This document shows positions 1-27,907 of a DNA stretch of 36,701 nucleotides, piece by piece (within the stretch, counting starts at the first letter, position 1; each line of letters starts with the position of its first letter). The position numbers and the translations under genes are program-made. The stretch is from contig DATLFR010000024.1 in assembly GCA_035540895.1 (NCBI GenBank), forward strand, positions 1-36,701, written 5' to 3'. Under the pieces are notes generated by a model. That model ran no database searches, was not told the DNA's origin, and saw only the letters and a list, made by a program, of their open reading frames with translations. The DNA is from Actinomycetota bacterium (GTDB lineage Bacteria > Actinomycetota > JAICYB01).

Positions 1-1457
1 TCCCCGCGGAACGCGGCCCGCAGCAGCTTCTTGTCTCCCGGACCTATGAGCTCGCCGGGGTGGCACGCCAGGACGAGCTCAAGCAGTTCGCGGTGCATGA
101 ACGGATAGGACCTGCGCACACCGAGCGAGCTCGCCGCCTCCCAGCCCATCGAGGTGAACTCCGACACCTCCAGGTAGTGCCACAGGCTCCTCCAGGGCGC
201 GTCCTGTGAGACGACCCGGGCCAGGGCGTCCCGTCGGATATCGGTCAGCTCCTCCTGCAGCTCGGGCCGGGTGAAGGAGGGGAGGGTGCGCGGGTAGCCG
301 ATCCGATGAGACGACCTGAGTCGCCGGCGCCGCACGAGCCAGCGGAGGACGTCCCGGTCCCGTCCGGGGAGGCTCTCTCGGTGGCGCAGCAGCTCGATCA
401 GCCCCGTCTCGGCCAGCCAGTCGGAGGTCGTGGAGCCCAGCGACCCCGTCGTCTCGTCGCCCATCTCCCCACCGGTCAGCACACGCACGTCCCCGGAGGC
501 CGTGACGCGGGGCAGGTAGCAGAGGACCGGGTGGGGGACGTGGTACGCGACGGGGGGTGCTTCGTCCAGCACCCGCAGGCGGGCGGAGAGGTCGCCCTCG
601 AACTCGTACCCGGGCTCGATACCTTCCTCGTCGCGCAGCCGCCGCAGCCTGGCCACCTCCTCCTCATAGGACGGCGAGGAGACGGACGGGAGCACCGAGA
701 GGCTCCCGAGATGAGCACCGAGGATCCGTCGCGCTATGAGGGCGAGGAGCGACGAGTCGACACCGCCGCTGAGCGACAGGACGTTCCCCTGTGGGGCGAG
801 ATCCCGTTCGAGCGCGGTGATCAGGCACGTCCGCAGCTGCGACGCGTGCGCCGCGGCGGTCTGGGGATCCGGGCGGGAGACCGACGGGGGCCGCGGATCC
901 CAGTACCGGCGGCGCTCGGCGCTGCGTCCACGCAGCCGGACGAACTCGCCTCGTCGCACGACCGACACCCCGGACAGGAACGTCCGGCCCTCGATCGAAG
1001 CGGGGTGTCCGGTCAGCCACACCGCGTTCTGGAGAGGGTCGAGCCGAGGGTCCGGAAGGTACCGGGCGAAGTAGGTCAGCCTCGTCCCGACCGCCCATCC
1101 GTCCGGGGTCGCCGCCCAGTACGCGGGGACGAGCCCGCCGCACGACCTGACCGCTATCGCGTCGTCCTCTCCGGGAGCCAGCTTCAGGACCCCCACGTCC
1201 CGGTGCCCGCGGGAGCCGAGGACCGTCGGGTCGAGCGGGCCGCCGGACGGGAGCGAGGGCTCGTCGGACTCGAAGACGATCGTGTCCGTGCTCTCGGGTG
1301 GACCGCTCTCGTCGAGCGGTGCCACGGCGACCAGCCAGCCGGCGGGCCCGTCAGAGACCGACGTGACCCCTTCAAGCTGGCGCAGCTTCCGCCGGGCCGG
1401 CTCGCGACGGGCCGGATCGGCTACCTGCACCGCGAAGACGTTGAGCAGGTTCCTCAC
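1..1457 (-). CDS. Lasso peptide cyclase (C protein, asparagine-synthetase-like), 3' end cut by the window
   Basis: It would close the isopeptide (macrolactam) ring of the lasso peptide by adenylating the Asp side chain of the core. In the 485 codons present, residues about 1-200 are a degenerate N-terminal glutaminase-like half without the N-terminal Cys nucleophile, followed by a YWDP motif. The asparagine-synthase half has the ATP pyrophosphatase loop LSLSGGVDSS at about 227-236 and GGEMGDE at about 329-335. The start is GTG, sharing GTGA with the stop of the kinase gene. I see no stop before base 1, so the C-terminal part is missing. Asparagine-synthase enzymes act in other pathways too, but the precursor, B1 and B2 upstream make the lasso role the best reading. 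Confidence 0.88.
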   Translation of the reverse strand, partial: MRNLLNVFAVQVADPARREPARRKLRQLEGVTSVSDGPAGWLVAVAPLDESGPPESTDTIVFESDEPSLPSGGPLDPTVLGSRGHRDVGVLKLAPGEDDAIAVRSCGGLVPAYWAATPDGWAVGTRLTYFARYLPDPRLDPLQNAVWLTGHPASIEGRTFLSGVSVVRRGEFVRLRGRSAERRRYWDPRPPSVSRPDPQTAAAHASQLRTCLITALERDLAPQGNVLSLSGGVDSSLLALIARRILGAHLGSLSVLPSVSSPSYEEEVARLRRLRDEEGIEPGYEFEGDLSARLRVLDEAPPVAYHVPHPVLCYLPRVTASGDVRVLTGGEMGDETTGSLGSTTSDWLAETGLIELLRHRESLPGRDRDVLRWLVRRRRLRSSHRIGYPRTLPSFTRPELQEELTDIRRDALARVVSQDAPWRSLWHYLEVSEFTSMGWEAASSLGVRRSYPFMHRELLELVLACHPGELIGPGDKKLLRAAFRG

Positions 1458-2386
1458 TGCGATCCGTGGAAGCCGTCCTCGACGAGGGCGGCCAGCTCGT
1501 CGAGGTGGTCGTCCCGGTGAAGATCCCCCCACGGCAGGGTGACCTCGTACATGGGCGTGGCGTCGCAGACGGCGGCCAACTGGTCGAGCTGTGAAGTCAG
1601 CATGCCCGGGTCCCGGATGCCCAGGACGCGGGGGATGCGCAGCAGGGTCACCACCGCGTCGGCCGGGGACAGGGGCCGGTATCGCAGGCCCTCGGTCTCC
1701 CGTGAGAGTCGCAGGTAGACGATCGTATCCAGCGGGACCGGCTCCGCGACGGGGGAGCGGCGGTAGCTGACCCTGCCGTCGGCGGTCGACGGAGCGCTGT
1801 CCGCCGAGAGCGCCGGCAGGTATCGGAGCGCGTTCGGCCGGAGCCTGATCTCGGCCGGTCCGGGGTGGCACAACACCTGTGCCCCCCCCACCGAGACCCG
1901 CAGGACGTCGTCGGTCACGAGCTCGGCTCCCCTCTCGCAGAGGGCGGCCGCCGTCGTCGACTTCCCGCCCCCCGACGAGGCCACGAGCGCGACGGTCCTC
2001 CCTCTCACTCGGACGGCGCTCGCGTGGAGCACCGGGTCGTGCTGGGCCAGCATGAAGGACATCACCGTCCCCGTGAAGAGGACCGCGGCCAACCCCTCGG
2101 ACGTCCCCTCCGGGAGATACGCGGTGACGTCGTCGTCACGCCCTACGTGGAACCCTGCGACGTCCGAGAACCGGATGAAGTGGTCGCCGTCCTGCCGGGA
2201 GACCGAGAAGGCGGCCGGCGAGCCGACCTCCGCGATCACCGTCCCGTTGCGGTCCTCGTCGTGCCGGTGAGGTCGGCAAGAGAGCTTGATCCGCCTGTCT
2301 CCCGTCCAGCCGGGCTCGGCGTGGGGCGCCACGAGAGGCAGCGCGGACCGGACGAGGCATCCGTACAGCCTGTAGCTGCCCGTCAT
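1454..2386 (-). CDS. HPr-kinase-like kinase of the lasso cluster (predicted precursor Ser kinase)
   Basis: The 310-aa protein resembles HprK-type kinases found in some lasso clusters, such as paeninodin's, where the enzyme phosphorylates the C-terminal Ser of the precursor. Visible motifs are LHASAV at about 120-125, a Walker A loop SSGGGKST at about 137-144, and LVTDDV at about 157-161, the usual kinase order. The start is ATG at 2386, overlapping the B2 stop as ATGA, and the end overlaps the cyclase start as GTGA, so it is translated in the operon. The precursor in this cluster ends in Ser, which fits. Substrate and phosphorylation are inferred from family and context. Confidence 0.82.
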   Translation of the reverse strand: MTGSYRLYGCLVRSALPLVAPHAEPGWTGDRRIKLSCRPHRHDEDRNGTVIAEVGSPAAFSVSRQDGDHFIRFSDVAGFHVGRDDDVTAYLPEGTSEGLAAVLFTGTVMSFMLAQHDPVLHASAVRVRGRTVALVASSGGGKSTTAAALCERGAELVTDDVLRVSVGGAQVLCHPGPAEIRLRPNALRYLPALSADSAPSTADGRVSYRRSPVAEPVPLDTIVYLRLSRETEGLRYRPLSPADAVVTLLRIPRVLGIRDPGMLTSQLDQLAAVCDATPMYEVTLPWGDLHRDDHLDELAALVEDGFHGSQ

Positions 2387-2832
2387 CCTCCGCTTGCGGC
2401 GTGCGTGAGGAGCCTGAAACCCGAGGTGTCGGCCCGAGAGGCGTCCAGGACGTGTCCGTCGATCTCGAGCCACGCGTGCGCGCGGACCCCGTCGGCGCCG
2501 GGAGCCACGCCGATCCTCAGGATCGGGGCGCGGTCGCGGAGCAGATGGCCGAGCACGAGGGACGTGCGCAGGCACTGCGGTCGGCCGCTCAGCCCGAGGA
2601 CCCTCCGTGTCGCCCGGACGCGGCGCCGCTCGGCCTCGTCGAGGTGCGGCCGCTCGCCGGTCTCAGAACCCTCCGGACCGTCACCGAGCCGGAACCCGAG
2701 CCCCTCGACGACGAGGGGCAGGGGGCGCCTGCGCAGTGCGCACTCGACGCGCGCGACCGTGAGGGCCGCTCGGACGGTCGCGCGGCGCTCGGCGCGCGGG
2801 AGCCTTCGGAAGGCTCGGAGGCTCCGTATCAA
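2383..2832 (-). CDS. Lasso peptide B2 protein, transglutaminase-like leader peptidase
   Basis: The 149-aa cysteine protease would cut the leader off the precursor. The pattern is that of the lasso B2 family: Cys87 in the context PQCLRTSL, His119 in RAHAW and an acidic residue at about Asp130 in GHVLD form the expected Cys-His-Asp triad. I place the start at TTG (2832), because TTGA overlaps the B1 stop and no ATG or GTG fits before the conserved region. The length is normal for split B2 proteins that work with a separate B1. It overlaps the kinase start by four bases. Confidence 0.88.
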   Translation of the reverse strand: MIRSLRAFRRLPRAERRATVRAALTVARVECALRRRPLPLVVEGLGFRLGDGPEGSETGERPHLDEAERRRVRATRRVLGLSGRPQCLRTSLVLGHLLRDRAPILRIGVAPGADGVRAHAWLEIDGHVLDASRADTSGFRLLTHAASGG

Positions 2833-3086
2833 GCGGACTCCTCGACCAGCCCGTGGATGAGCAGCTGCTGCCAGGCGACGTCGAGATCGGCCGCCGCGCG
2901 CAGCTCGGTGACGTCGAACTCGGAGACGATCGAGGCGAGGACAGAGGATCGGCTCTCGCCCGCTGCGGCCAGCTGCCAGATGCGGGTGGCCACCCGATTC
3001 AGGGTGAAGTACGTCCCCGACGCGAGGTCGAGGGCGACGGCTTCGGAGCCGACCACCTGATGGGTCACGTGCTCTGGGATCTTCAA
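2829..3086 (-). CDS. Lasso peptide B1 protein, PqqD-like RiPP recognition element
   Basis: The 85-aa PqqD-fold protein should bind the precursor leader and deliver it to B2 and C. It shows the family pattern: a start like MKIPEHV, then VALDLASGTYFTLN, ATRIWQLAA and a C-terminal helix ending HGLVEESA. I chose TTG at 3086 because a perfect AGGAGG (3092-3097) lies five bases upstream. A GTG at 3104 overlapping the RTX stop (GTGA) is in frame and would add six residues. Either way its translation is tied to the RTX gene upstream. It ends in a TTGA overlap with B2. Confidence 0.87.
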   Translation of the reverse strand: MKIPEHVTHQVVGSEAVALDLASGTYFTLNRVATRIWQLAAAGESRSSVLASIVSEFDVTELRAAADLDVAWQQLLIHGLVEESA

Positions 3087-3100
3087 GGGGTCCTCCTGGG

Positions 3101-5839
3101 TCACGGGCAGTTCGTGAGGGCGTTCGTGCCGGCTCCCCCGTCGCACACGTTGGTGCCGGGGCGCCCTCCGTCGAGGTCGTCGTCGCCGTCCCCGCCGAAG
3201 AGCGAGTCGTCTCCGGCGTCCCCACGCAGGACGTCGTTGCCGTCGTAGCCGTGGAGGATGTCGTTCCCGGCGCCACCGTGCAGGACGTTCGCCACGTTCG
3301 TGGCGTGGAGCGTGTCGTTGAAAGCGGAGCCCGACAGGTTCTCAACGCCCGAGAGGTTGTCGGTACCGGCGCCAACCGTCGCCTGAGGACCGACGATGCG
3401 CAGGTCGACGAGGACGCCCGCGGCGGCATGGAAGTAGCTGACCGTGTCGTTCCCGTCGCCGCCCGTCAGCGTGTCGTCGCTCGATCCTCCGTAGAGCACA
3501 TCGTCCCCGCCCTGACCATCGAGGGTGTTGATGCCCTCGTGGCCGAACAGGGTGTCGTTGCCGCCTCCACCGAGGAGCGTGTCGTTGCCTCCCTTGCCTC
3601 GCAGGTTGTTGCTCCCGCCGTCGCCCTTGAGGGTGTCCGCGTGGTCCGATCCGGTGAGGTTCTCGATGCCGCTGAGCTGGTCGGACCCGTCCCCGCCGGT
3701 GTTCTGCGCCGAGGCCACCGCCAGGTCGACGGTCACGCCGCCGGCCGCCTGCGAGTAGCTCGCCGAGTCGATGCCCGCGCCGCCGGTCAGGACGTCGTTG
3801 CCGGGTCCGCCCTGCAGGCCGTCGTTGCCTCCGGCCCCGTCGATCGTGTCGTTGCCGGGTCCGCCCCTGAGCACGTCGTTCCCGGACCCCCCGGTGAGGG
3901 TGTCGTCGTACCGGGAGCCGGTGAGCTGCTCGAAGCCGGACAGCGTGTCCGTGCCGTCCCCGACCGTGTTCTGCGCGCCTCCCACGCCGAGGTTGACGGT
4001 CACTCCCGTCTCGGAGGGCTCGTAGCTGACGTTGTCCACGCCTAGGCCGGCGTCCAGGACGTCGTCTCCCGGCCCGCCCGAGATGGTGTCGTCACCGTCG
4101 GCGCCGCTGATCTGGTCGTTGCCGCCCCGGCCCCACAGGTGGTTCGCGGCCCCGTTGCCGGTGATCGTGTCGTTGCCCTCGCTGCCCGATGCGTGATCGA
4201 TCCCCAGCAGGACGTCGGCCCCCTCGCCCGAGGCGGTGCCGGTAGCGAGGTTCACCGTGACCGGGCCCGTACGACCACGGTGGGTCACGATGTCCTGGCC
4301 GGCGCCGCCGTCCAGGCGGTTGTCCAGGGCGTTCCCGGAGAGGACGTCGTTGAACGCGGTGCCGGTGAGGTTCTCGAAGTTGAGGATCGTGTCGTTGCCG
4401 TCACGGGTGTCCTGCGCGGTGTTCAGCGAGAGGTTGACCCGCACCCCGTTCGGGCGGCCGGCGAAGCTGACCGTGTCGGTCCCCGCCGCGCCGTCGAGCA
4501 CGTTGTTCAGAGCGCTCCCCATGATCGTGTCGTTCCCGGGCGTCGCGATGACGTTCTCCAGGTTCAGGAAGGTCTTGTTGCTGCCTGCGCCGACCGTGTT
4601 CTGGGGGCCGGTCGCGGCCAGGTCCACCGTCACGCCGGACCCCGCGCAGAACGAGAGCGTGTCCGCACCGGGAGCGCCGTCGATCCGGTTGTTGCTCTCT
4701 GTGCCGGTGGCGATGGTGTCGGGTCCGTCCGACCCGATCAGGTTGAGGATCCCGGTGAAGGTGTCGGAGCCGTCCCCCGTGGCCGTCTGGGTGCAGAGGT
4801 TCGCGCTGACGGGCCCCGGACGCTCGGCGTAGGAGACGATGTTGACGGCGCCGGACCCCCCGGCCGTGAAGACGTCGTTGCCGGGCCCGCTCTGGAACAC
4901 GTTCGTGATGCCGGCTCCCGACTGACCGATGATGTCGGCTCCTCCCGGTCCGCCCTGGAAGCCGTTGCAGCTCGCCTTCACCGCGTCGTTGCCCTCCTCG
5001 GTGGCATTCACCGAGTAGTCCGTCCCCAGGTTCGCCTGGAAGCGGTTGTTCAGGTGACCGAAGATCGCCACGTCGTTCCCGGTGCCGCAGTCGAGGGTGT
5101 CGTTGCCCTGTCCCCCCCACAGCTTGTCGTCACCCGCGCCTCCGAGGAGCGTCATGTTCCGGGTCGTCCCCACGCGCGTCGCGGTCCCGGAGGCGGGAGC
5201 GGTCGCGGTGAAACCGCCCTCGCCCCCGATGATGTGATCGTTGCCGGCCCCCCCCTGGACGGTGAACTTGGCCTGGGTACCGCCGAGGTTGTGGATGGCC
5301 ATGTCGGATGCGCCGTCGTTGTCTCGGTCCACCACCGTGTAGGTGATGGCGCCGCCGGCGGCCATGCCCAGGCGCGTCTTGCGGGTCTCCGGTGTTGAGT
5401 AGGTCCTGAACGTGAACTCGTCGTTGCCCGACCCTCCGTTCACGTTCACCGCTATCAGCTGGTTCGTGGAGCTGTTGCGGAGAGGGTGGGTCGACTCGCT
5501 TATGTCGAGGTACTGGGTCGAGTTCTCGCCCTGCACGTTGATCGTGGTCGTGTTCGCCAGGGTCGCGGTCCCGCACTGCTGGAACGTCGTGGGGGGCGTC
5601 CAGTTGTTGCCGCTCTTCCCCCAGATGCCGAACTGGATCACCGACCCGTCCGTCTGGACCGTGACGCCCTCGTTCCCCGCGTTCAGGGATACCGTGACCG
5701 TTGAGCCGGCGATGCCGCAGGTGACGGCGGCCGAGACGGGGATCGACGGAAGAGACGACGCGAGCATGAACACGAGGCTCATCCCCGCCAGGAGTGCTGC
5801 CTTCTGGACGCGCGTGACGCTAGAGGATCTGCCAGACAT
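3101..5839 (-). CDS. Secreted RTX-type calcium-binding repeat protein inside the lasso operon
   Basis: The 912-aa exported protein has a signal peptide at about 1-37 (hydrophobic stretch, then VSA/A). From about 135 to the end it carries many glycine/aspartate nonapeptides of the RTX type (GGxGxDxLx) that normally fold as a calcium-loaded beta-roll. They are interleaved with about six longer modules of the form GVTVDLA...AQNTVGDGTD...LSGxENLTGS, near 402, 465, 526, 612, 701 and 808. The end is Cys-containing (CDGGAG...NCP). It lies 38 bases after the precursor gene and overlaps the B1 start region, so it belongs to the lasso transcript. RTX proteins are not a standard lasso component; a role in binding, export or storage is only inference. 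Confidence 0.9.
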   Translation of the reverse strand: MSGRSSSVTRVQKAALLAGMSLVFMLASSLPSIPVSAAVTCGIAGSTVTVSLNAGNEGVTVQTDGSVIQFGIWGKSGNNWTPPTTFQQCGTATLANTTTINVQGENSTQYLDISESTHPLRNSSTNQLIAVNVNGGSGNDEFTFRTYSTPETRKTRLGMAAGGAITYTVVDRDNDGASDMAIHNLGGTQAKFTVQGGAGNDHIIGGEGGFTATAPASGTATRVGTTRNMTLLGGAGDDKLWGGQGNDTLDCGTGNDVAIFGHLNNRFQANLGTDYSVNATEEGNDAVKASCNGFQGGPGGADIIGQSGAGITNVFQSGPGNDVFTAGGSGAVNIVSYAERPGPVSANLCTQTATGDGSDTFTGILNLIGSDGPDTIATGTESNNRIDGAPGADTLSFCAGSGVTVDLAATGPQNTVGAGSNKTFLNLENVIATPGNDTIMGSALNNVLDGAAGTDTVSFAGRPNGVRVNLSLNTAQDTRDGNDTILNFENLTGTAFNDVLSGNALDNRLDGGAGQDIVTHRGRTGPVTVNLATGTASGEGADVLLGIDHASGSEGNDTITGNGAANHLWGRGGNDQISGADGDDTISGGPGDDVLDAGLGVDNVSYEPSETGVTVNLGVGGAQNTVGDGTDTLSGFEQLTGSRYDDTLTGGSGNDVLRGGPGNDTIDGAGGNDGLQGGPGNDVLTGGAGIDSASYSQAAGGVTVDLAVASAQNTGGDGSDQLSGIENLTGSDHADTLKGDGGSNNLRGKGGNDTLLGGGGNDTLFGHEGINTLDGQGGDDVLYGGSSDDTLTGGDGNDTVSYFHAAAGVLVDLRIVGPQATVGAGTDNLSGVENLSGSAFNDTLHATNVANVLHGGAGNDILHGYDGNDVLRGDAGDDSLFGGDGDDDLDGGRPGTNVCDGGAGTNALTNCP

Positions 5840-5877: not shown

Positions 5878-6072
5878 TCAGCTGATGCCCATCGGGAGGA
5901 TGCCGCCGCCTTGAGCGTCGGACCCGAGGACGTCGTCGCCGCCCCTGGTGATCTCGATCAGGCTCCCGAGGACGGTCACGGCCGGAGCCTCGTAAGGCAG
6001 TTTCTGGCTCGATGCGACGGGGGTCGCGTCGGTCCCGGCGCGCGCGAGCGCGCCGTCACTGGCGTCGTGCAT
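5878..6072 (-). CDS. Lasso peptide precursor (A), 64 aa
   Basis: The leader (1-43) carries the lasso recognition signature YxxPxVxxxGxxxxxT: Tyr27, Pro30, Val32, Gly36 and Thr42. Thr42 is the usual penultimate leader residue, so the core is residues 44-64 (21 aa). The core begins with Gly and has Asp at core position 9, giving a nine-residue ring GGDDVLGSD. The tail ends LPMGIS with a C-terminal Ser, the residue a cluster kinase would modify. There is no Cys, so it would be a class II lasso peptide. The start ATG at 6072 has a modest GGGTGG upstream; longer in-frame starts give an arginine-rich extension unlike a leader. It is the first gene of the operon. Confidence 0.9.
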   Translation of the reverse strand: MHDASDGALARAGTDATPVASSQKLPYEAPAVTVLGSLIEITRGGDDVLGSDAQGGGILPMGIS

Positions 6073-6374
6073 CAGTACCACCCTTCTGCTCGTTGCCCGC
6101 GTCGCTGGTCGCCCGGTGACCGCGCGCGGTGATGGGGGAATGTTTCGGCGTCCCCTGCACGTCCCCTGCCAGGGCGATCTGGGCATTCCGCCCCCCCGTC
6201 GGGGGATGCAGCGACCAGTTCGGGGGATATCGGACCGGGAAGGAGGGATCGGTGGCCCGGCGGAGAACTAGCCCGCAGTGGCCTAGGACTGGGGGAAGCA
6301 AGGGGCCACGCCGGGATGCTGGGCAAACTCCCGGTTGTCGTCGTTGACGTCGATCCACGAGCTGGGGGTTCTAC
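6073..6374. other. Divergent intergenic region between the lasso operon and the 6375 gene
   Basis: I see no gene here. It should hold the lasso operon promoter (leftward) and the promoter of the gene at 6375 (rightward). Visible structure is a tandem 11-base repeat CGTCCCCTGC(A/C) at 6149-6159 and 6160-6170, and five G5 tracts at 6134, 6201, 6222, 6291 and 6364. I could not assign a convincing -35/-10 pair. Confidence 0.5.
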
Positions 6375-8345: not shown

Positions 8346-9758
8346 ATGGCGAAGACCCCCCTTGAGATAGACCCCCAGGGCTCCTACGAGCAGCGTTGGG
8401 GCTGGCACGACCCAGAGAACTACGTCTTCAAGCCCTCGAAGGGGATCGACCAGACGAAGGTCGAGGAGATCTCCTTCATGAAGTCCGAGCCGAAGTGGAT
8501 GCGCGACTTCAGGCTGAAGTCCTTCGAGCGATACGTCCGTCGGCCGATGCCGAACTGGGGAGCCGATCTGTCCGGCATCGACTTCGACGACATCTACTAC
8601 TTCCTCCGCGCGACCGACAAGCCCGGCCGCACGTGGGACGAGGTGCCGGCCGATATCAAGAACACGTTCGACCGCCTGGGGATCCCCGAAGCCGAGCGCG
8701 AGTACCTGGCCGGTGTCTCGGCCCAGTACGAGAGCGAGAGCGTCTACCACTCCGTGCAGGAGTCGCTGACGAAGCAGGGCGTCATCTTCATGGACATGGA
8801 CTCGGCCATCCGCGAGGTGCCGGAGCTCGTCCAGAGGTACTGGGCCACGGTGATCCCTCCGAACGACAACAAGCTCGCCGCCCTCAACTCGGCCGTGTGG
8901 TCCGGCGGCTCCTTCATCTACGTCCCCCCGGGCGTGAAGGTCGACGTGCCGCTGCAGGCCTACTTCCGCATCAACGCGGAGAACATGGGCCAGTTCGAGC
9001 GCACGCTGATCATCGCCGACGAGGGCTCGTACGTTCACTACGTGGAGGGATGCACGGCGCCTGCCTACACGTCCGCGTCGCTGCACTCGGCCGTGGTCGA
9101 GCTGATCGCGCTGCCCCACTCCCGGATCCGCTACACCACGATCCAGAACTGGGCGGGTAGCGTCTACAACCTGGTCACGAAGCGCGCGGTCGCCCACGAG
9201 AACGCCGTCGTGGAGTGGGTCGACGGCAACATCGGGTCCAAGGTCACGATGAAGTACCCCGCCGTGGTGCTCGCCGGACGGAAGGCGCACGGAGAGGTGC
9301 TGTCCCTCGCGATGGCCAACCGCGGCCAGCACCAGGACACGGGAGCCAAGATGACCCACGCGGCTCCCGAGACGTCGTCCACGATCATCTCGAAGTCCAT
9401 CTCGAAGGACGGGGGCCGGACGTCGTACCGCGGCCTCGTGAAGGTCGAGGAGGGCGCCTACAAGAGCCGGTCGAACGTGGTCTGCGACGCGCTCCTGATC
9501 GACGACGAATCGATCTCGGACACCTACCCCTACATGGACATCCGCGAGGAGGACGTCTCCATCGGCCACGAGGCCACCGTGGCCCGCATCGGCGACGACC
9601 AGATGTTCTACCTGCAGAGCCGCGGGATCCCCGAGGCCGAGGCGGCCGCGATGATCGTGCGCGGGTTCATCGAGCCGATCGCCAAGTCGCTCCCTATGGA
9701 GTACGCGGTCGAGTTGAACCGGTTGATCGAGCTCGAGATGGAAGGCTCGGTCGGCTAG
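8346..9758 (+). CDS. sufB: Fe-S cluster assembly scaffold SufB
   Basis: The 470-aa protein is the scaffold subunit of the SufBCD complex, on which sulfur from SufS/SufU and iron are assembled into clusters in the cytoplasm. It is recognised along its whole length: the early [12 protein letters not shown] region, [22 protein letters not shown] in the middle, and the C-terminal [24 protein letters not shown] block. The length is normal and no intein is seen. It stands alone, about 14 kb from sufD, with its own regulated promoter and a terminator behind it. Most actinobacteria keep sufB next to sufD. Confidence 0.97.
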
Positions 9759-15092: not shown

Positions 15093-15677
15093 CTAGCCGC
15101 GGTGCTCCGGGAGGAGGCAGGCCCCGCCCTCCGAGAACCCCTGAGCCCCCACGCCGAGCCCCCGGTTGAACCGGGACAGGAGGTTCTCGGTGGCGATCGT
15201 CGCGGTCAGCTCGACCAGCTGGCGTTCGTCGAGTTGCGCCCGGAGCTCCGCGAACAGATCGTCGGGCACGTCAGCGGGCGACCGGCTGAGGGCTTCCGCG
15301 TAGCGGAGCACGGCCCGCTCGAGGGGGGAGAAGGCCTCGCTCGCCGGATCCCCCACGGCGAGCAGCTTCTCCTCACTGAGGCCGGTCGCCCTGACCAGGG
15401 CGGAACCGAAATCCAGTCACCAGGGGCATCCCACGATCGTGGACACCTTCGCCCGGGCGAGCTCGCGCAGGTCGAACGGGACGGACCGCGATCTCAGGAG
15501 CGCGCGTTCCAGCAGGCCGTACGCCTGCATGACCGACGGAGAGTGGGCGAGGAGCTTGTAGGGCTCCAGCACCTCGTCGCGTCCCATCAGCTTGCGGGTG
15601 ACGCGCCGCCCGATCAGGTACGTGGCCTTCACGAGCAGCGGGGCTCCCTTGGGCTCGACGCCTCTGATCCTGGCCAT
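15093..15677 (-). CDS. Carboxymuconolactone-decarboxylase/AhpD-like protein, candidate selenoprotein with CPWU
   Basis: Read through one in-frame TGA (15417-15419), this frame gives a 194-aa protein of the CMD/AhpD-like family. The TGA is codon 87 in GCPW-U-LDFGSA, where Cys-containing relatives have a second Cys (pattern CPxC-[IL]D-GSA), so it replaces the redox or resolving cysteine. The frame continues another 108 codons with conserved family text: FSPLERAVLRYAEALSR, LDERQLVELTATIA and NLLSRFNRGLGVGAQGFSEG. The start ATG at 15677 has GGAGGAG upstream. A hairpin at 15383-15408 meets SECIS rules. AhpD-like proteins act on peroxides or use a CxxC redox pair. The alternative is a nonsense mutation; the exact position of TGA argues against it. 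Confidence 0.8.
15383..15408 (-). promoter_or_regulatory. Predicted bacterial SECIS hairpin
   Basis: Downstream of the TGA, bases +16 to +20 (GCCCU) pair with +25 to +29 (AGGGC) around a GGUC loop whose first base, G, is +21. A lower stem CGGU (+9 to +12) pairs with ACCG (+31 to +34) across a small internal loop. Bacterial SECIS elements have a short upper stem with a G among the first two loop bases, 16-37 bases after the UGA. The E. coli fdhF loop also contains GGUC. Confidence 0.7.
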
Positions 15678-15744
15678 GGTCTCCTCCCGGACCCAGCGTA
15701 GCTCGCCCCGTTTGGCTCGAGCCACGCCTGGGCACACGTCACCC

Positions 15745-23506: not shown

Positions 23507-23847
23507 CGCCTGCGGACGGACCGGCCCGCGTGGCGCGCTCCGCCGGACCGCCGGCTGTGAACCCCCCGGCCCGCGTCTGCGCCGGCGCACCGGGCCACAT
23601 GTGGCCGCTTCCGCCGGACCACGCTCGACCCACGGCCCTCCTCGCGCGTGCGCCGGCGCGTCCGGCCGCAGCCGCCCCCGATCCCCCGTCCGGGCGTGAC
23701 GCCGTCGCCGGCTCCCGGCTCCCGCTTGTGAACGGATGCACGACCTGGACGGATTTGGCCAACCTCGATAGGATTTAGAAGCGACCGGGAGCCGCCCACG
23801 GCGTGACCGGGCGGCGGCGCCGGCTCCCCTACCACCACCGAGGTGCC
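23507..23847. other. Intergenic region upstream of sufD
   Basis: Apart from the regulatory block at 23727-23774 described separately, I see no gene or RNA in this stretch. Its first 200 bases are G+C-rich, and the frames there read as Pro/Ala/Arg-rich shadow text. Confidence 0.55.
23727..23774 (+). promoter_or_regulatory. sufD operon promoter block matching the sufB promoter
   Basis: TGTGA at 23727-23731 begins a degenerate CRP-like site (TGTGA-N6-GCACG). It is followed by -35 TGGACG (23746-23751) and -10 TAGGAT (23769-23774), 17 bases apart. The spacer contains GATTTGGCCAAC, in which TTGGCCAA is palindromic. From the -35 box on, 29 of 32 bases equal the sufB promoter. Confidence 0.7.
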
Positions 23848-25128
23848 ATGACCGCGACGACCACCTACACCGATCCGCAGTGGGTCTCCGACCTGCGGCG
23901 ACGAGCCGCCGAGGCCCGGGACCAGGCCGTCTACCCGTCCGGGCGGGAGGAACACTGGCGTTTCACCGACGTGTCCTTGCTCCGCCCGGAGCTCTACGAC
24001 GCGACGCCCGCCGAGAGCGACCGCACCACGACCCCAGGGAAGGCGACCTCCGCGCTCGAGCTGTCCGGGCTCCAGTCGGCGGGTCGCGCGATCCACACCG
24101 ACGCGTCGCTCGCCGAGCTCACGCTCTCAGACGAGGCGATGTCCAAGGGCGTCGTCTTCAAGCCGCTCGGCGAGGCCGTCCAGACGCATGCCGACGTCCT
24201 CGAGCCGCGGCTCGGCTCCCTGGTCGGCGCCAGCGACACCTTCACGTCCTGGTCGCTCGCCGACTGGCGCGGCGGGATGTTCCTGTACGTCCCCCGCGGG
24301 GTCTCGCTCACGGACCCGATCCAGGCCCTGCACTGGATCGACGCGGCGGGCACGGTGGTCCAGCCCCGGACCGTCGTCGTCGTGGAGGAGGACGCTCGCG
24401 TCGTCTTCAACGACCTATACGCCTCCAACGACCTGGACCGTCCCACGCTCGCCATGCCCACCGTCGAGCTGTTCGTGGGGCGGGGGGCCAACGTCGGCTG
24501 GGTCACCTGGCAGGACTGGGGATCGGGCGTCCGGCACCTGGCGCACGTGAAGGCGCAGCTCGACCGGGACGCGACCCTCAACACGCTGCTCGTGACGCTC
24601 GGCGGCGACTTCAGCCGGACGACGAAGGAGTGCGTCCTGGCCGGCGAGGGAGCCGAGAGCTACATGTACGGTCTGTACTTCCCGCACGGCGAGCAGCGCT
24701 TCGAGCACTGGACGGTCCAGGACCACGCGAGTCCCAACACGACGTCCGACCTGCTGTACAAGGGCGCGCTGACCGACACCTCGCAGGCCGTCTACTACGG
24801 GACGATCGTCGTCCGGCCGGGCTCGGCCAAGACGAACGCCTACCAGGCCAACCGGAACCTGACCCTGTCTCCGAGGGCGCGCGCGCTCACGAACCCGCAG
24901 CTCGAGATCCAGAACAACGACGTCCGGTGCACGCACGGCGCCACCGTCGGACAGATCGACGAGGACCACCTCTTCTACATCCAGAGCCGCGGCGTCCCCC
25001 GCGACGAGGCGGAGCGACTCGTCGTGTTCGGGTTCTTCAACGAGGTGCTCGAGCGCGTCACGTGGTCGGGCATGCACGAGCGGCTCGCCGAGGCGATCCG
25101 TCACAAGATGCTGGGAGCCGACCTGTGA
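23848..25128 (+). CDS. sufD: Fe-S cluster assembly protein SufD
   Basis: The 426-aa partner of SufB in the SufBC2D complex is needed for iron entry and cluster formation. Its C-terminal block NDVRCTHGATVGQIDEDHLFYIQSRGVP is the family hallmark. The beginning EEHWRFTDVSLLRPELYDA is also typical of SufD and not of SufB. The start ATG has GAGG close upstream. It is the first gene of the operon and shares a GTGA overlap with the Rieske gene. SufB itself is encoded 14 kb away. Confidence 0.96.
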   Translation: MTATTTYTDPQWVSDLRRRAAEARDQAVYPSGREEHWRFTDVSLLRPELYDATPAESDRTTTPGKATSALELSGLQSAGRAIHTDASLAELTLSDEAMSKGVVFKPLGEAVQTHADVLEPRLGSLVGASDTFTSWSLADWRGGMFLYVPRGVSLTDPIQALHWIDAAGTVVQPRTVVVVEEDARVVFNDLYASNDLDRPTLAMPTVELFVGRGANVGWVTWQDWGSGVRHLAHVKAQLDRDATLNTLLVTLGGDFSRTTKECVLAGEGAESYMYGLYFPHGEQRFEHWTVQDHASPNTTSDLLYKGALTDTSQAVYYGTIVVRPGSAKTNAYQANRNLTLSPRARALTNPQLEIQNNDVRCTHGATVGQIDEDHLFYIQSRGVPRDEAERLVVFGFFNEVLERVTWSGMHERLAEAIRHKMLGADL

Positions 25129-25445
25129 GCGAGTGGGTGCGTGTCGCCTCGGTCCAAGACATCCCGGACGACGAGGCCTTCCAGGTGAAGGCGGGCGGCG
25201 ACCTGATCGCGCTCGTCCGCTACGAGGGCGAGCTCTACGCCGTCTCGGACATCTGCACGCACGAGTACACGCACCTGTCCGACGGGTTCATCGACGGACC
25301 GTGCATCGAGTGCCCGTTGCACGGGGCGATGTTCGACGTCCGGACCGGCGAGGTGAAGGCGCTGCCCGCCACGAAGCCCCTCCGGACGTTCCCGGCCAAG
25401 ATCGACGGCGACGACGTCTACATCCAGATAGGAGACCCCGCATGA
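25125..25445 (+). CDS. Rieske [2Fe-2S] ferredoxin of the SUF operon
   Basis: The 106-aa protein has the Rieske cluster ligands CTH (context DICTHEYTHL) and CPLH (context IECPLHGAMF), two Cys and two His. The length is that of non-heme oxygenase ferredoxins. It sits between sufD and sufC with four-base overlaps at both ends, a placement known in several actinobacteria. A role as electron donor to cluster assembly or repair is likely but inferred. The start is GTG. Confidence 0.93.
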   Translation: MSEWVRVASVQDIPDDEAFQVKAGGDLIALVRYEGELYAVSDICTHEYTHLSDGFIDGPCIECPLHGAMFDVRTGEVKALPATKPLRTFPAKIDGDDVYIQIGDPA

Positions 25446-26224
25446 GCCTTCTCGAGATCCATGACCTGCACGTGACCGTCGAGGACAAGCCCATCCTCCG
25501 CGGCGTCGACCTCGTGGTGGACGAGGGCAAGGTCCACGCGTTGATGGGTCCGAACGGGTCGGGGAAGTCGACGCTGGCGAGCGTCCTGATGGGCCATCCC
25601 GCCTTCGAGATCACGGGCGGACGGATCGTCTTCAAGGGTGAGGACATCACCGAGGACTCCCCGGAGGACCGCGCTGCCAAGGGGGTCTTCCTGGCCTTCC
25701 AGTACCCGGTCGAGGTCCCGGGGGTGTCGGTCTCGAACTTCCTACGCACCTCGATCAACGCCGTGCGCGGCACCGACGTCCCCATACGGGAGTTCATGCA
25801 GCAGCTGCGTGAGGCCATGGAGCTGCTCGGCATGGACCCCGACTTCGCGAAGCGCAGCATCAACGAGGGGTTCTCCGGGGGAGAGAAGAAGCGCAACGAG
25901 ATCCTGCAGCTGGCGCTGCTCCGCCCCGCCCTCGCGATCCTGGACGAGACCGACTCCGGTCTGGACATCGACGCGCTGCGGATCGTGTCCGAGGCCGTGA
26001 ACAAGGTGAAGGGTCCGGACATGGGGATCCTGATCATCACCCACTACACCCGGATCCTGAACTACATCACCCCCGACGTCGTGCACATCCTGCTCGGCGG
26101 TCGGGTGGTGCGGACGGGAGGTCCGGAGCTCGCCCACCACCTCGAGGAGGCCGGGTACGAGGCGATCCGCGCGGAGTACGGTATCGACACGGACGAAGCG
26201 GTGACGGAGAAGGCACAGGGATGA
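25442..26224 (+). CDS. sufC: Fe-S cluster assembly ATPase SufC
   Basis: The 260-aa ABC-type ATPase works in the soluble SufBC2D complex, with no transport role. Walker A is GPNGSGKST, the SufC-specific AFQYPVEVPGVSVSNFLR follows, then the signature FSGGEKKRNEILQLALL, Walker B AILDETDSGLDIDAL and the switch ITHYTRIL. It overlaps both neighbours by ATGA. Confidence 0.97.
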   Translation: MSLLEIHDLHVTVEDKPILRGVDLVVDEGKVHALMGPNGSGKSTLASVLMGHPAFEITGGRIVFKGEDITEDSPEDRAAKGVFLAFQYPVEVPGVSVSNFLRTSINAVRGTDVPIREFMQQLREAMELLGMDPDFAKRSINEGFSGGEKKRNEILQLALLRPALAILDETDSGLDIDALRIVSEAVNKVKGPDMGILIITHYTRILNYITPDVVHILLGGRVVRTGGPELAHHLEEAGYEAIRAEYGIDTDEAVTEKAQG

Positions 26225-27468
26225 CCCTGGACGTGGCGAGGGTCCGCTCAGACTTCCCGGTCCTCGGCCGGGAGGTCAACGGGCGTCCGCTCGTCTACCT
26301 CGACTCGGCCGCGACCTCTCAGAAGCCGCGGTCGGTCATCGACGCGATGACCGAGTACTACGAGCGGTACAACTCCAACGCCCACCGGGGCCTGCACGCG
26401 CTGGCCGCGGAGGCCACCGTCGCCTACGAGGCCGCCCGGGACAAGATCGCCCGGTTCGTCGGGGCTCCCGACGCGCGCGGGGTCGTCTTCACACGGAACA
26501 CGACCGAGGCCATCAACCTCGTGTCCTACGCGTGGGCCCGGCGCCGGCTCGGCCCGGGCGACGAGATCCTCGCCTCGGTGATGGAGCACCACTCCAACCT
26601 CGTCCCGTGGCAGCTCGCCGCGGCCGATACCGGGGCGACGGTGCGCTACATCCCCGTCACCGACGGCGGCGAGCTCGACCTGTCCGACCTCGGGAGCCTG
26701 GTGACCGATCGCACGAAGTTGGTCGCGGTGAGCGGTATGTCCAACGTCTTGGGCACGATCAACGACCTGGGCCCCCTGGTCGAGGCGGCGCGCGCGGTCG
26801 GGGCGCTCGTCCTCGTCGACGGGGCGCAGCTCGTCATGCACACCCCTGTCGCGTTCACGGAGCTCGGCGCCGACCTACTCGCCTTCTCGGCCCACAAGAT
26901 GCTCGGCCCCACGGGGATCGGGTGCCTCGTGGCCCGTCCGGAGCTCCTGGAGAGCATGGACCCGTTCCTGGGCGGCGGCGAGATGATCTCCGACGTGACG
27001 CTCGAGGGTTCGACGTGGGCGGACATCCCGTTCAAGTTCGAGGCGGGGACCCAGGCGATAGCCGAGGCCGTCGGGTTCGGCGCAGCGGTCGACTACCTGA
27101 CCCAGCTCGGCATGGAGGCGGTCCGCGACCACGAGGTCGAGCTGTCCCGGTACGCGCTGAAGGAGCTCGGCTCGGTCGAGGGCGTCGTCGTGTACGGACC
27201 GCGGGAATCGGAGCGACGGGGCGCCGTGTTCTCATTCAACGTGTACGACGACCGCGGAGAGCTGATCCACCCCCACGACGTGGCCACGATGCTCGACCAG
27301 GACGGGATAGCGGTGCGGGCCGGACATCACTGCGCCCGGCCGCTCATGCGGCGTCTGGACGTGCCGGCCACGAACCGCGCGTCGTGCTACGTCTACAACT
27401 CGGAGAGCGACATAGACGCGCTCGTCGAGTCCATCGAGCGCACGAAGCGCTTCTTCATCGGAGGTTGA
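26221..27468 (+). CDS. sufS: Cysteine desulfurase SufS
   Basis: The 415-aa PLP enzyme takes sulfur from cysteine and passes it to SufU. Visible features are YLDSAATSQKP near the start, NAHRGLHALA, VDGAQ for cofactor binding, the PLP lysine in AFSAHKMLGPTG, and the active-site Cys in RAGHHCARPLMRRL. The length is normal. It overlaps sufC by ATGA; sufU follows one base after its stop. Confidence 0.97.
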   Translation: MTLDVARVRSDFPVLGREVNGRPLVYLDSAATSQKPRSVIDAMTEYYERYNSNAHRGLHALAAEATVAYEAARDKIARFVGAPDARGVVFTRNTTEAINLVSYAWARRRLGPGDEILASVMEHHSNLVPWQLAAADTGATVRYIPVTDGGELDLSDLGSLVTDRTKLVAVSGMSNVLGTINDLGPLVEAARAVGALVLVDGAQLVMHTPVAFTELGADLLAFSAHKMLGPTGIGCLVARPELLESMDPFLGGGEMISDVTLEGSTWADIPFKFEAGTQAIAEAVGFGAAVDYLTQLGMEAVRDHEVELSRYALKELGSVEGVVVYGPRESERRGAVFSFNVYDDRGELIHPHDVATMLDQDGIAVRAGHHCARPLMRRLDVPATNRASCYVYNSESDIDALVESIERTKRFFIGG

Positions 27469-27469
27469 G

Positions 27470-27907
27470 GTGTCGGCCGAGGACCTGTACCGAGAGATCA
27501 TCCTGGACCACTACCGGTCGCCGAGGAACAAGCGGCGAGGGGTGGAGGGCGCCATCGACGTGAAGCACGACAACCCGCTGTGCGGCGACGAGCTGCACCT
27601 GGCCGTGGACGTGCGCAACGGCGAGCTGTCCGACGTCGCCTTCGACGGCCGGGGGTGCTCCATCTCCCAGGCCTCGGCGTCGATGATGACGGAGGCCGTC
27701 CGCGGGAGGTCCGTCTCCGACGCCCTGGGCATCGCGGAGACGGTTCGGCTCATGATGCACGGCGAGTCGCCCTCCGACGACCTCGGCGACCTGATGGCGC
27801 TCGAGGGCGTGGCCCGGTTCCCGGTTCGCGTGAAGTGCGCCCTGCTCGCGTGGATGGCGCTGAAGGACGCGCTTGGACGCGTCGACGGACGGGGGGCCCC
27901 CGCATGA
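27470..27907 (+). CDS. sufU: Sulfur-relay protein SufU
   Basis: The 145-aa zinc-containing protein accepts sulfur from SufS. It shows the SufU ligands: Cys and Asp in NPLCGD, Cys in GRGCSISQAS and Cys in VKCALLAW, and the N-terminal LYREIILDHYRSPRNKR. The start is GTG, one base after sufS. The end overlaps sufT by ATGA. Confidence 0.95.
   Translation: MSAEDLYREIILDHYRSPRNKRRGVEGAIDVKHDNPLCGDELHLAVDVRNGELSDVAFDGRGCSISQASASMMTEAVRGRSVSDALGIAETVRLMMHGESPSDDLGDLMALEGVARFPVRVKCALLAWMALKDALGRVDGRGAPA

What the first reader, a model, noticed from the sequence alone, without database searches (positions are those of the whole stretch)
15383..15408. Hairpin after the TGA has the bacterial SECIS layout
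A 5-bp upper stem with a GGUC loop, G first, begins 16 bases after the UGA, with an additional 4-bp lower stem. Loop content and distance meet the published rules for SelB-recognised elements. The sequence is also constrained to encode the conserved LDFGSALVRATG, so the coincidence is notable.
Basis: partly seen in the sequence, partly recalled or inferred. Interest (0 to 1): 0.8.

Follow-up and report, generated by a model that had tools for sequence, protein, structure and literature searches.

The report
SECIS hairpin in an AhpD-like selenoprotein gene
The hairpin is very probably the ordinary bacterial signal that tells the ribosome to insert selenocysteine at a UGA codon, here in the active site of a small AhpD-like redox protein, a selenoprotein type already known since 2005.

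Summary
The hairpin is real and lies where reported, on the minus strand: a 6-bp upper stem (not 5) with a GGUC loop starting 20 nt after the UGA, a UC bulge and a 4-bp lower stem. On its own it proves little: in this G+C-rich DNA, 92% of synonymous recodings of the same peptide also satisfy the minimal bSECIS rules and 17% are as stable.

The comparative evidence is strong. Eighteen homologous genes, the window's included and some from another phylum, have TGA at exactly this codon; 35 have Cys there. Stem pairs covary among homologues. The genome carries selA, selB, tRNA-Sec and a UGA-containing selD.

The gene (15094-15677, 194 codons) encodes a carboxymuconolactone decarboxylase/AhpD-fold protein with a CPWU (CxxU) motif. 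CxxU AhpD-like and CMD-domain selenoproteins have been published since 2005, so this is a new member of a known kind. Sec insertion and SelB binding are inferred, not shown.

The parts
15094..15677 (-). Selenoprotein gene, CMD/AhpD-like, 194 codons with in-frame TGA at codon 87, TAG stop at 15096-15094
   Evidence: Read-through translation; Pfam PF02627 across the TGA, E 6.8e-8, over the cut-off; AhpD-fold model, pLDDT 91
15417..15419 (-). UGA codon read as selenocysteine (second position of the CxxU motif GCPWU)
   Evidence: 18 homologous genes have TGA and 35 have TGC/TGT at this aligned codon, none anything else
15383..15408 (-). SECIS hairpin, 26 nt: lower stem 15408-15405 with 15386-15383, bulge UC 15404-15403, upper stem and loop
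   Evidence: RNAfold -13.8 kcal/mol; present in TGA and absent in Cys homologues
15387..15402 (-). Upper stem, 6 bp: CGCCCU (15402-15397) with AGGGCG (15392-15387)
   Evidence: compensatory C-G to U-A change in L039, both sides synonymous
15393..15396 (-). Apical loop GGUC, first base 20 nt after the UGA
   Evidence: Same loop in L039 and in E. coli fdhF, where it starts 18 nt after the UGA
15681..15687 (-). Probable ribosome binding site GGAGGAG before ATG 15677
   Evidence: Read directly from the sequence

Best explanation
The hairpin is a bacterial SECIS element. In the mRNA of this CMD/AhpD-like gene the organism's SelB, carrying GTP and Sec-tRNA-Sec, binds the stem-loop through its C-terminal domain and delivers selenocysteine at the UGA that ends 20 nt before the loop, so that translation goes on for 107 more codons. 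The product is a 194-residue AhpD-fold protein with a CxxU motif that probably does thiol/selenol redox chemistry (peroxide or disulfide reduction, or a related reductive reaction). Shown here from sequence: the gene, the UGA position, the hairpin, its link to UGA rather than Cys across homologues, pair covariation among homologues, and the complete Sec machinery in the genome. Inferred: SelB binding, Sec insertion itself, and the enzyme reaction.
For: TGA at the same codon in 18 homologous genes including Acidobacteria, Cys in 35. Stem of -7 kcal/mol or better with loop 16-22 nt away in 17/18 TGA and 0/35 Cys genes. Covariation in 14 TGA genes of one register: 4 of 7 pairs changed on both sides, 94.9% of cells paired against 40-50% in slid controls. 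selB and selA, tRNA-Sec with anticodon TCA, selD with its own UGA followed by a GGU-containing loop. All limits of the published bSECIS model met (model in PMC13188914; values).
Against: The hairpin is no more stable than shuffled sequence and rule-meeting stems are common here. The window's own GGUC register has only one other member, L039, so covariation for exactly this register is not significant. L044 has TGA without an uninterrupted stem. selA was not found in two TGA genomes, which are 60% and 68% complete. No protein evidence.
Confidence: 0.96

Rival explanations
1. Chance hairpin: G+C-rich coding sequence folds easily, and the UGA is a sequencing error or a pseudogene stop.
For: 92% of synonymous recodings meet the minimal rules and 17% are as stable; z = -0.76.
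Against: TGA at the same codon in 17 further genes from other genomes, the stem at that place tied to TGA (17/18) and not to Cys (0/35); coding similarity goes on for about 100 residues after the TGA.
Confidence: 0.02
2. The UGA is decoded as Sec, but the signal is not this hairpin as drawn: another or larger structure around the UGA is what SelB recognises.
For: The register differs between homologues (GGUC at +20 in the window and L039, GUG type at +18 in most others), L044 has an interrupted stem, and L055 has more than one possible pairing.
Against: 17 of 18 elements lie within the published range with G in the first two loop positions; stem pairs covary; the window loop equals that of E. 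coli fdhF.
Confidence: 0.02
3. UGA is read as another residue (Trp, Gly or Cys) by a changed genetic code or a suppressor tRNA, without SECIS.
For: An in-frame UGA in a conserved gene would look the same.
Against: tRNA-Sec, selA, selB and selD are present; homologues have only TGA, TGC or TGT at this codon; neighbouring genes in the window are open without read-through.
Confidence: 0.005

Closest known systems
Bacterial SECIS element (bSECIS consensus model, PMC13188914 Fig. 2; E. coli fdhF as type case)
   Same: Position after the UGA, stem and loop sizes, G in the first two loop positions, energy; the GGUC loop is the one found in fdhF
   Different: Upper stem 6 bp with a 2-nt UC bulge below it; fdhF has a 4-bp upper stem below the loop and a different lower part
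AhpD-like (COG2128 YciW / TIGR01926) and CMD-domain (PF02627) CxxU selenoproteins, Zhang et al. 2005 PMC1088965
   Same: CMD/AhpD domain, CxxU motif with Sec in the second position, SECIS right after the UGA
   Different: Below the TIGR01926 cut-off (38.7 against 81.8 bits); it comes from a little-sampled class, not a marine set
NCBIfam NF053654 YciW-related (seleno)protein (GroundWater_YciW)
   Same: Best NCBIfam match, nearly full length (residues 1-180, E 7.7e-24), and the model itself allows Sec or Cys
   Different: 84.4 bits against a cut-off of 310, so a relative and not a member
Solved AhpD-fold proteins PA0269 (2ijc, 2o4d), 2prr, Bmp8 debrominase (6ohi)
   Same: Same fold; sequence match to PA0269 and Bmp8 spans the UGA
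   Different: 20-33% identity in the fold alignments; their motif residues and reactions were not compared here

Membership tests
Bacterial SECIS element | Apical loop of 3-9 nt and upper stem of 4-16 bp | tested here: met
   Loop 4 nt, stem 6 bp
Bacterial SECIS element | G in the first two loop positions | tested here: met
   GGUC
Bacterial SECIS element | 16-37 nt between UGA and apical loop | tested here: met
   20 nt
Bacterial SECIS element | Minimum free energy at or below -7.5 kcal/mol | tested here: met
   -13.8 for the 26-nt element; not discriminating, since 99.7% of recodings meet it over 40 nt
Bacterial SECIS element | Structure kept in Sec genes, not needed in Cys genes | tested here: met
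   17/18 against 0/35; covariation in homologues
Bacterial SECIS element | Binds SelB and directs Sec insertion | not testable with these tools
   Needs an experiment
Bacterial selenoprotein gene | Genome encodes SelA, SelB, SelD and tRNA-Sec | tested here: met
Bacterial selenoprotein gene | Cys homologues at the UGA position | tested here: met
   35 Cys homologues; column invariant
CMD domain family PF02627 | Score over the curated cut-off | tested here: met
   32.8 against 23 bits
NCBIfam NF053654 YciW-related (seleno)protein | Score over the curated cut-off | tested here: not met
   84.4 against 310 bits
TIGR01926 peroxidase-related enzyme (AhpD-like selenoprotein family of the published tables) | Score over the curated cut-off | tested here: not met
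   38.7 against 81.8 bits

The most novel reading that the evidence does not exclude
Within this one protein family the UGA and its SECIS arose, or were rebuilt, more than once: the window's GGUC loop at +20 and the GUG-type loop at +18 would be separate inventions in the same codons, each shaping the encoded residues (SALVRA against SAVGRE). The tree forces at least 3 Sec/Cys changes, but one origin with register shifts and losses is not excluded.
Probability: 0.3. Interest if true: 0.4.

Novelty: new member of a known kind. Interest (0 to 1): 0.24.

Why it matters
It matters mainly for annotation: a caller that takes UGA as stop would end this gene at codon 86. It adds a Sec-containing CMD/AhpD subgroup that falls below the existing NCBIfam cut-offs, in a class with only three held genomes, and gives a clear natural set of Sec and Cys versions in which the hairpin comes and goes with the UGA.

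Tried and rejected
Folding stability as proof: rejected, z = -0.76 and 92% of synonymous recodings meet the rules. Rfam: no SECIS family match at this place, and nothing at gathering threshold in the window. Formate dehydrogenase alpha in the own genome as a second UGA control: matches below cut-off and without internal stops. Closer relatives: the two other genomes of the class lack the gene at the threshold used, and in the order of G241 only G241 and G134 have it. One search used a mistyped structure string and is superseded. selA presence against Sec/Cys state is only weakly informative (8/8 against 17/28 in genomes at least 90% complete, P = 0.036), because many Cys-only genomes keep selA. 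Covariation for the two-sequence GGUC set cannot reach significance.

Full report
What is there. On the minus strand an open frame runs from ATG at 15677 to TAG at 15094, interrupted once by TGA at 15419-15417 (codon 87 of 194). Read through, the product matches Pfam CMD (PF02627, E 6.8e-8, over the curated cut-off), and the match spans the TGA (residues 47-129). The TGA stands in the second Cys position of the motif: GCPW-U-LDFG. In a 22-protein alignment that position and the first Cys are both invariant. An AlphaFold model (pLDDT 91) matches solved AhpD-fold proteins such as PA0269, 2prr and the debrominase Bmp8 (by sequence).

The hairpin. After the UGA the RNA reads CUGGAUUU-CGGU-UC-CGCCCU-GGUC-AGGGCG-ACCG. 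The 26-nt element folds to ((((..((((((....)))))))))) at -13.8 kcal/mol. The upper stem is 6 bp and not 5, and the loop begins after 20 nt. All limits of the published bSECIS model (PMC13188914, Fig. 2 legend) are met.

Chance. The layout alone is not remarkable. The 43-nt stretch from the UGA is no more stable than shuffles (z -0.76). Of 20,000 synonymous recodings of the same 20 residues with the window's codon usage, 92% contain a stem that meets the minimal rules, 17% are as stable as the real one, and 4.7% are as stable with the loop at 17-20 nt. Of 5,262 codons in 16 other window genes, 74% are followed by a rule-meeting stem.

Comparison. Homologues were collected from whole genomes and from GTDB contigs. 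At the aligned codon 18 genes (the window's included) have TGA and 35 have TGC or TGT; no other codon occurs. A stem of -7 kcal/mol or better with its loop 16-22 nt after the codon is present in 17 of 18 TGA genes and 0 of 35 Cys genes. Relatedness makes the formal P (6e-13) too small, but the contrast is nearly complete. The single exception, L044, has the stem interrupted.

Covariation. In 14 TGA genes that share one register (CUCUGCC-GUG-GGCAGAG type), 4 of 7 pairs have changes on both sides and 94.9% of cells pair, against 40-50% in slid controls. The window belongs to a second register (GGUC loop at +20) together with L039 (49% protein identity). The two differ at one stem pair, C-G against U-A, made by two synonymous third-base changes, GCC/GCT and AGG/AGA. 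With two sequences this is suggestive only.

Machinery. The genome (2.64 Mb, 97.7% complete) has selB and selA about 1 kb apart on one contig and tRNA-Sec with anticodon TCA. It has selD, which carries its own in-frame UGA followed by GAGGACCU-AGGUG-AGGUCCUC. That second element shares GGU in the loop with the window's GGUC. E. coli fdhF, read from MG1655 as a yardstick, has GGUC 18 nt after its UGA. selA was found in 13 of 15 TGA genomes examined, and the two without it are 60% and 68% complete. Many Cys-only genomes also keep selA, so this co-occurrence is weakly informative.

Evolution. On a maximum-likelihood tree Sec and Cys versions are mixed; well-supported branches force at least 3 changes. 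This is the familiar exchange of Sec and Cys. The two hairpin registers raise the possibility of separate SECIS origins, which is not settled.

How it works. From established knowledge of SelB (PMC5311926): SelB with GTP and Sec-tRNA-Sec binds the SECIS through domain 4, keeps RF2 away from the A site and delivers Sec at the UGA. The sequence evidence fits this. Binding, insertion and the enzyme reaction are inferred.

Placement. CxxU AhpD-like (27 sequences) and CMD-domain (4 sequences) selenoproteins were reported from the Sargasso Sea in 2005 (PMC1088965) and stand in current tables (PMC9312934 and PMC13188914). The window protein is below the cut-offs of NF053654 and TIGR01926, so it is a neighbouring subgroup of the same kind: a new member of a known kind.

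Noticed in passing
L010 (own genome contig C144, 5853-6776, minus): selD of the same genome has its own in-frame TGA near the N-terminus (HGAG-U-ACK), followed by a strong 8-bp stem with an AGGUG loop: a second SECIS in the genome.
   Followed up: partly
window 15100-15125, minus strand: A C-terminal Cys (GGACLLPE) is kept in most Sec and Cys homologues that reach that far; it could be a further redox residue.
   Followed up: no
window 1-3146, minus strand, perhaps with 5878-6186: Asparagine-synthase-like, HPr-kinase-like, transglutaminase-like (lasso B2 type) and PqqD-like genes lie side by side, the make-up of a lasso-peptide cluster; the small frame 5878-6186 without a Pfam match might be the precursor.
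   Followed up: no
window 3101-5839, minus strand: A 912-residue frame rich in GGxGND-type repeats, RTX-like by eye, overlaps the lasso-like genes' end.
   Followed up: no
window 8346-9758 and 23803-27907, plus strand: Two SufBD genes lie 14 kb apart, the second with what look like SufC, SufS and SufU after it; the sufB gene is separated from the rest of the cluster.
   Followed up: no
G470 (L077 and L080): One genome reached through the Acidobacteria search carries two different TGA-containing copies of this gene (37% identity each to the window protein), both with the hairpin.
   Followed up: no
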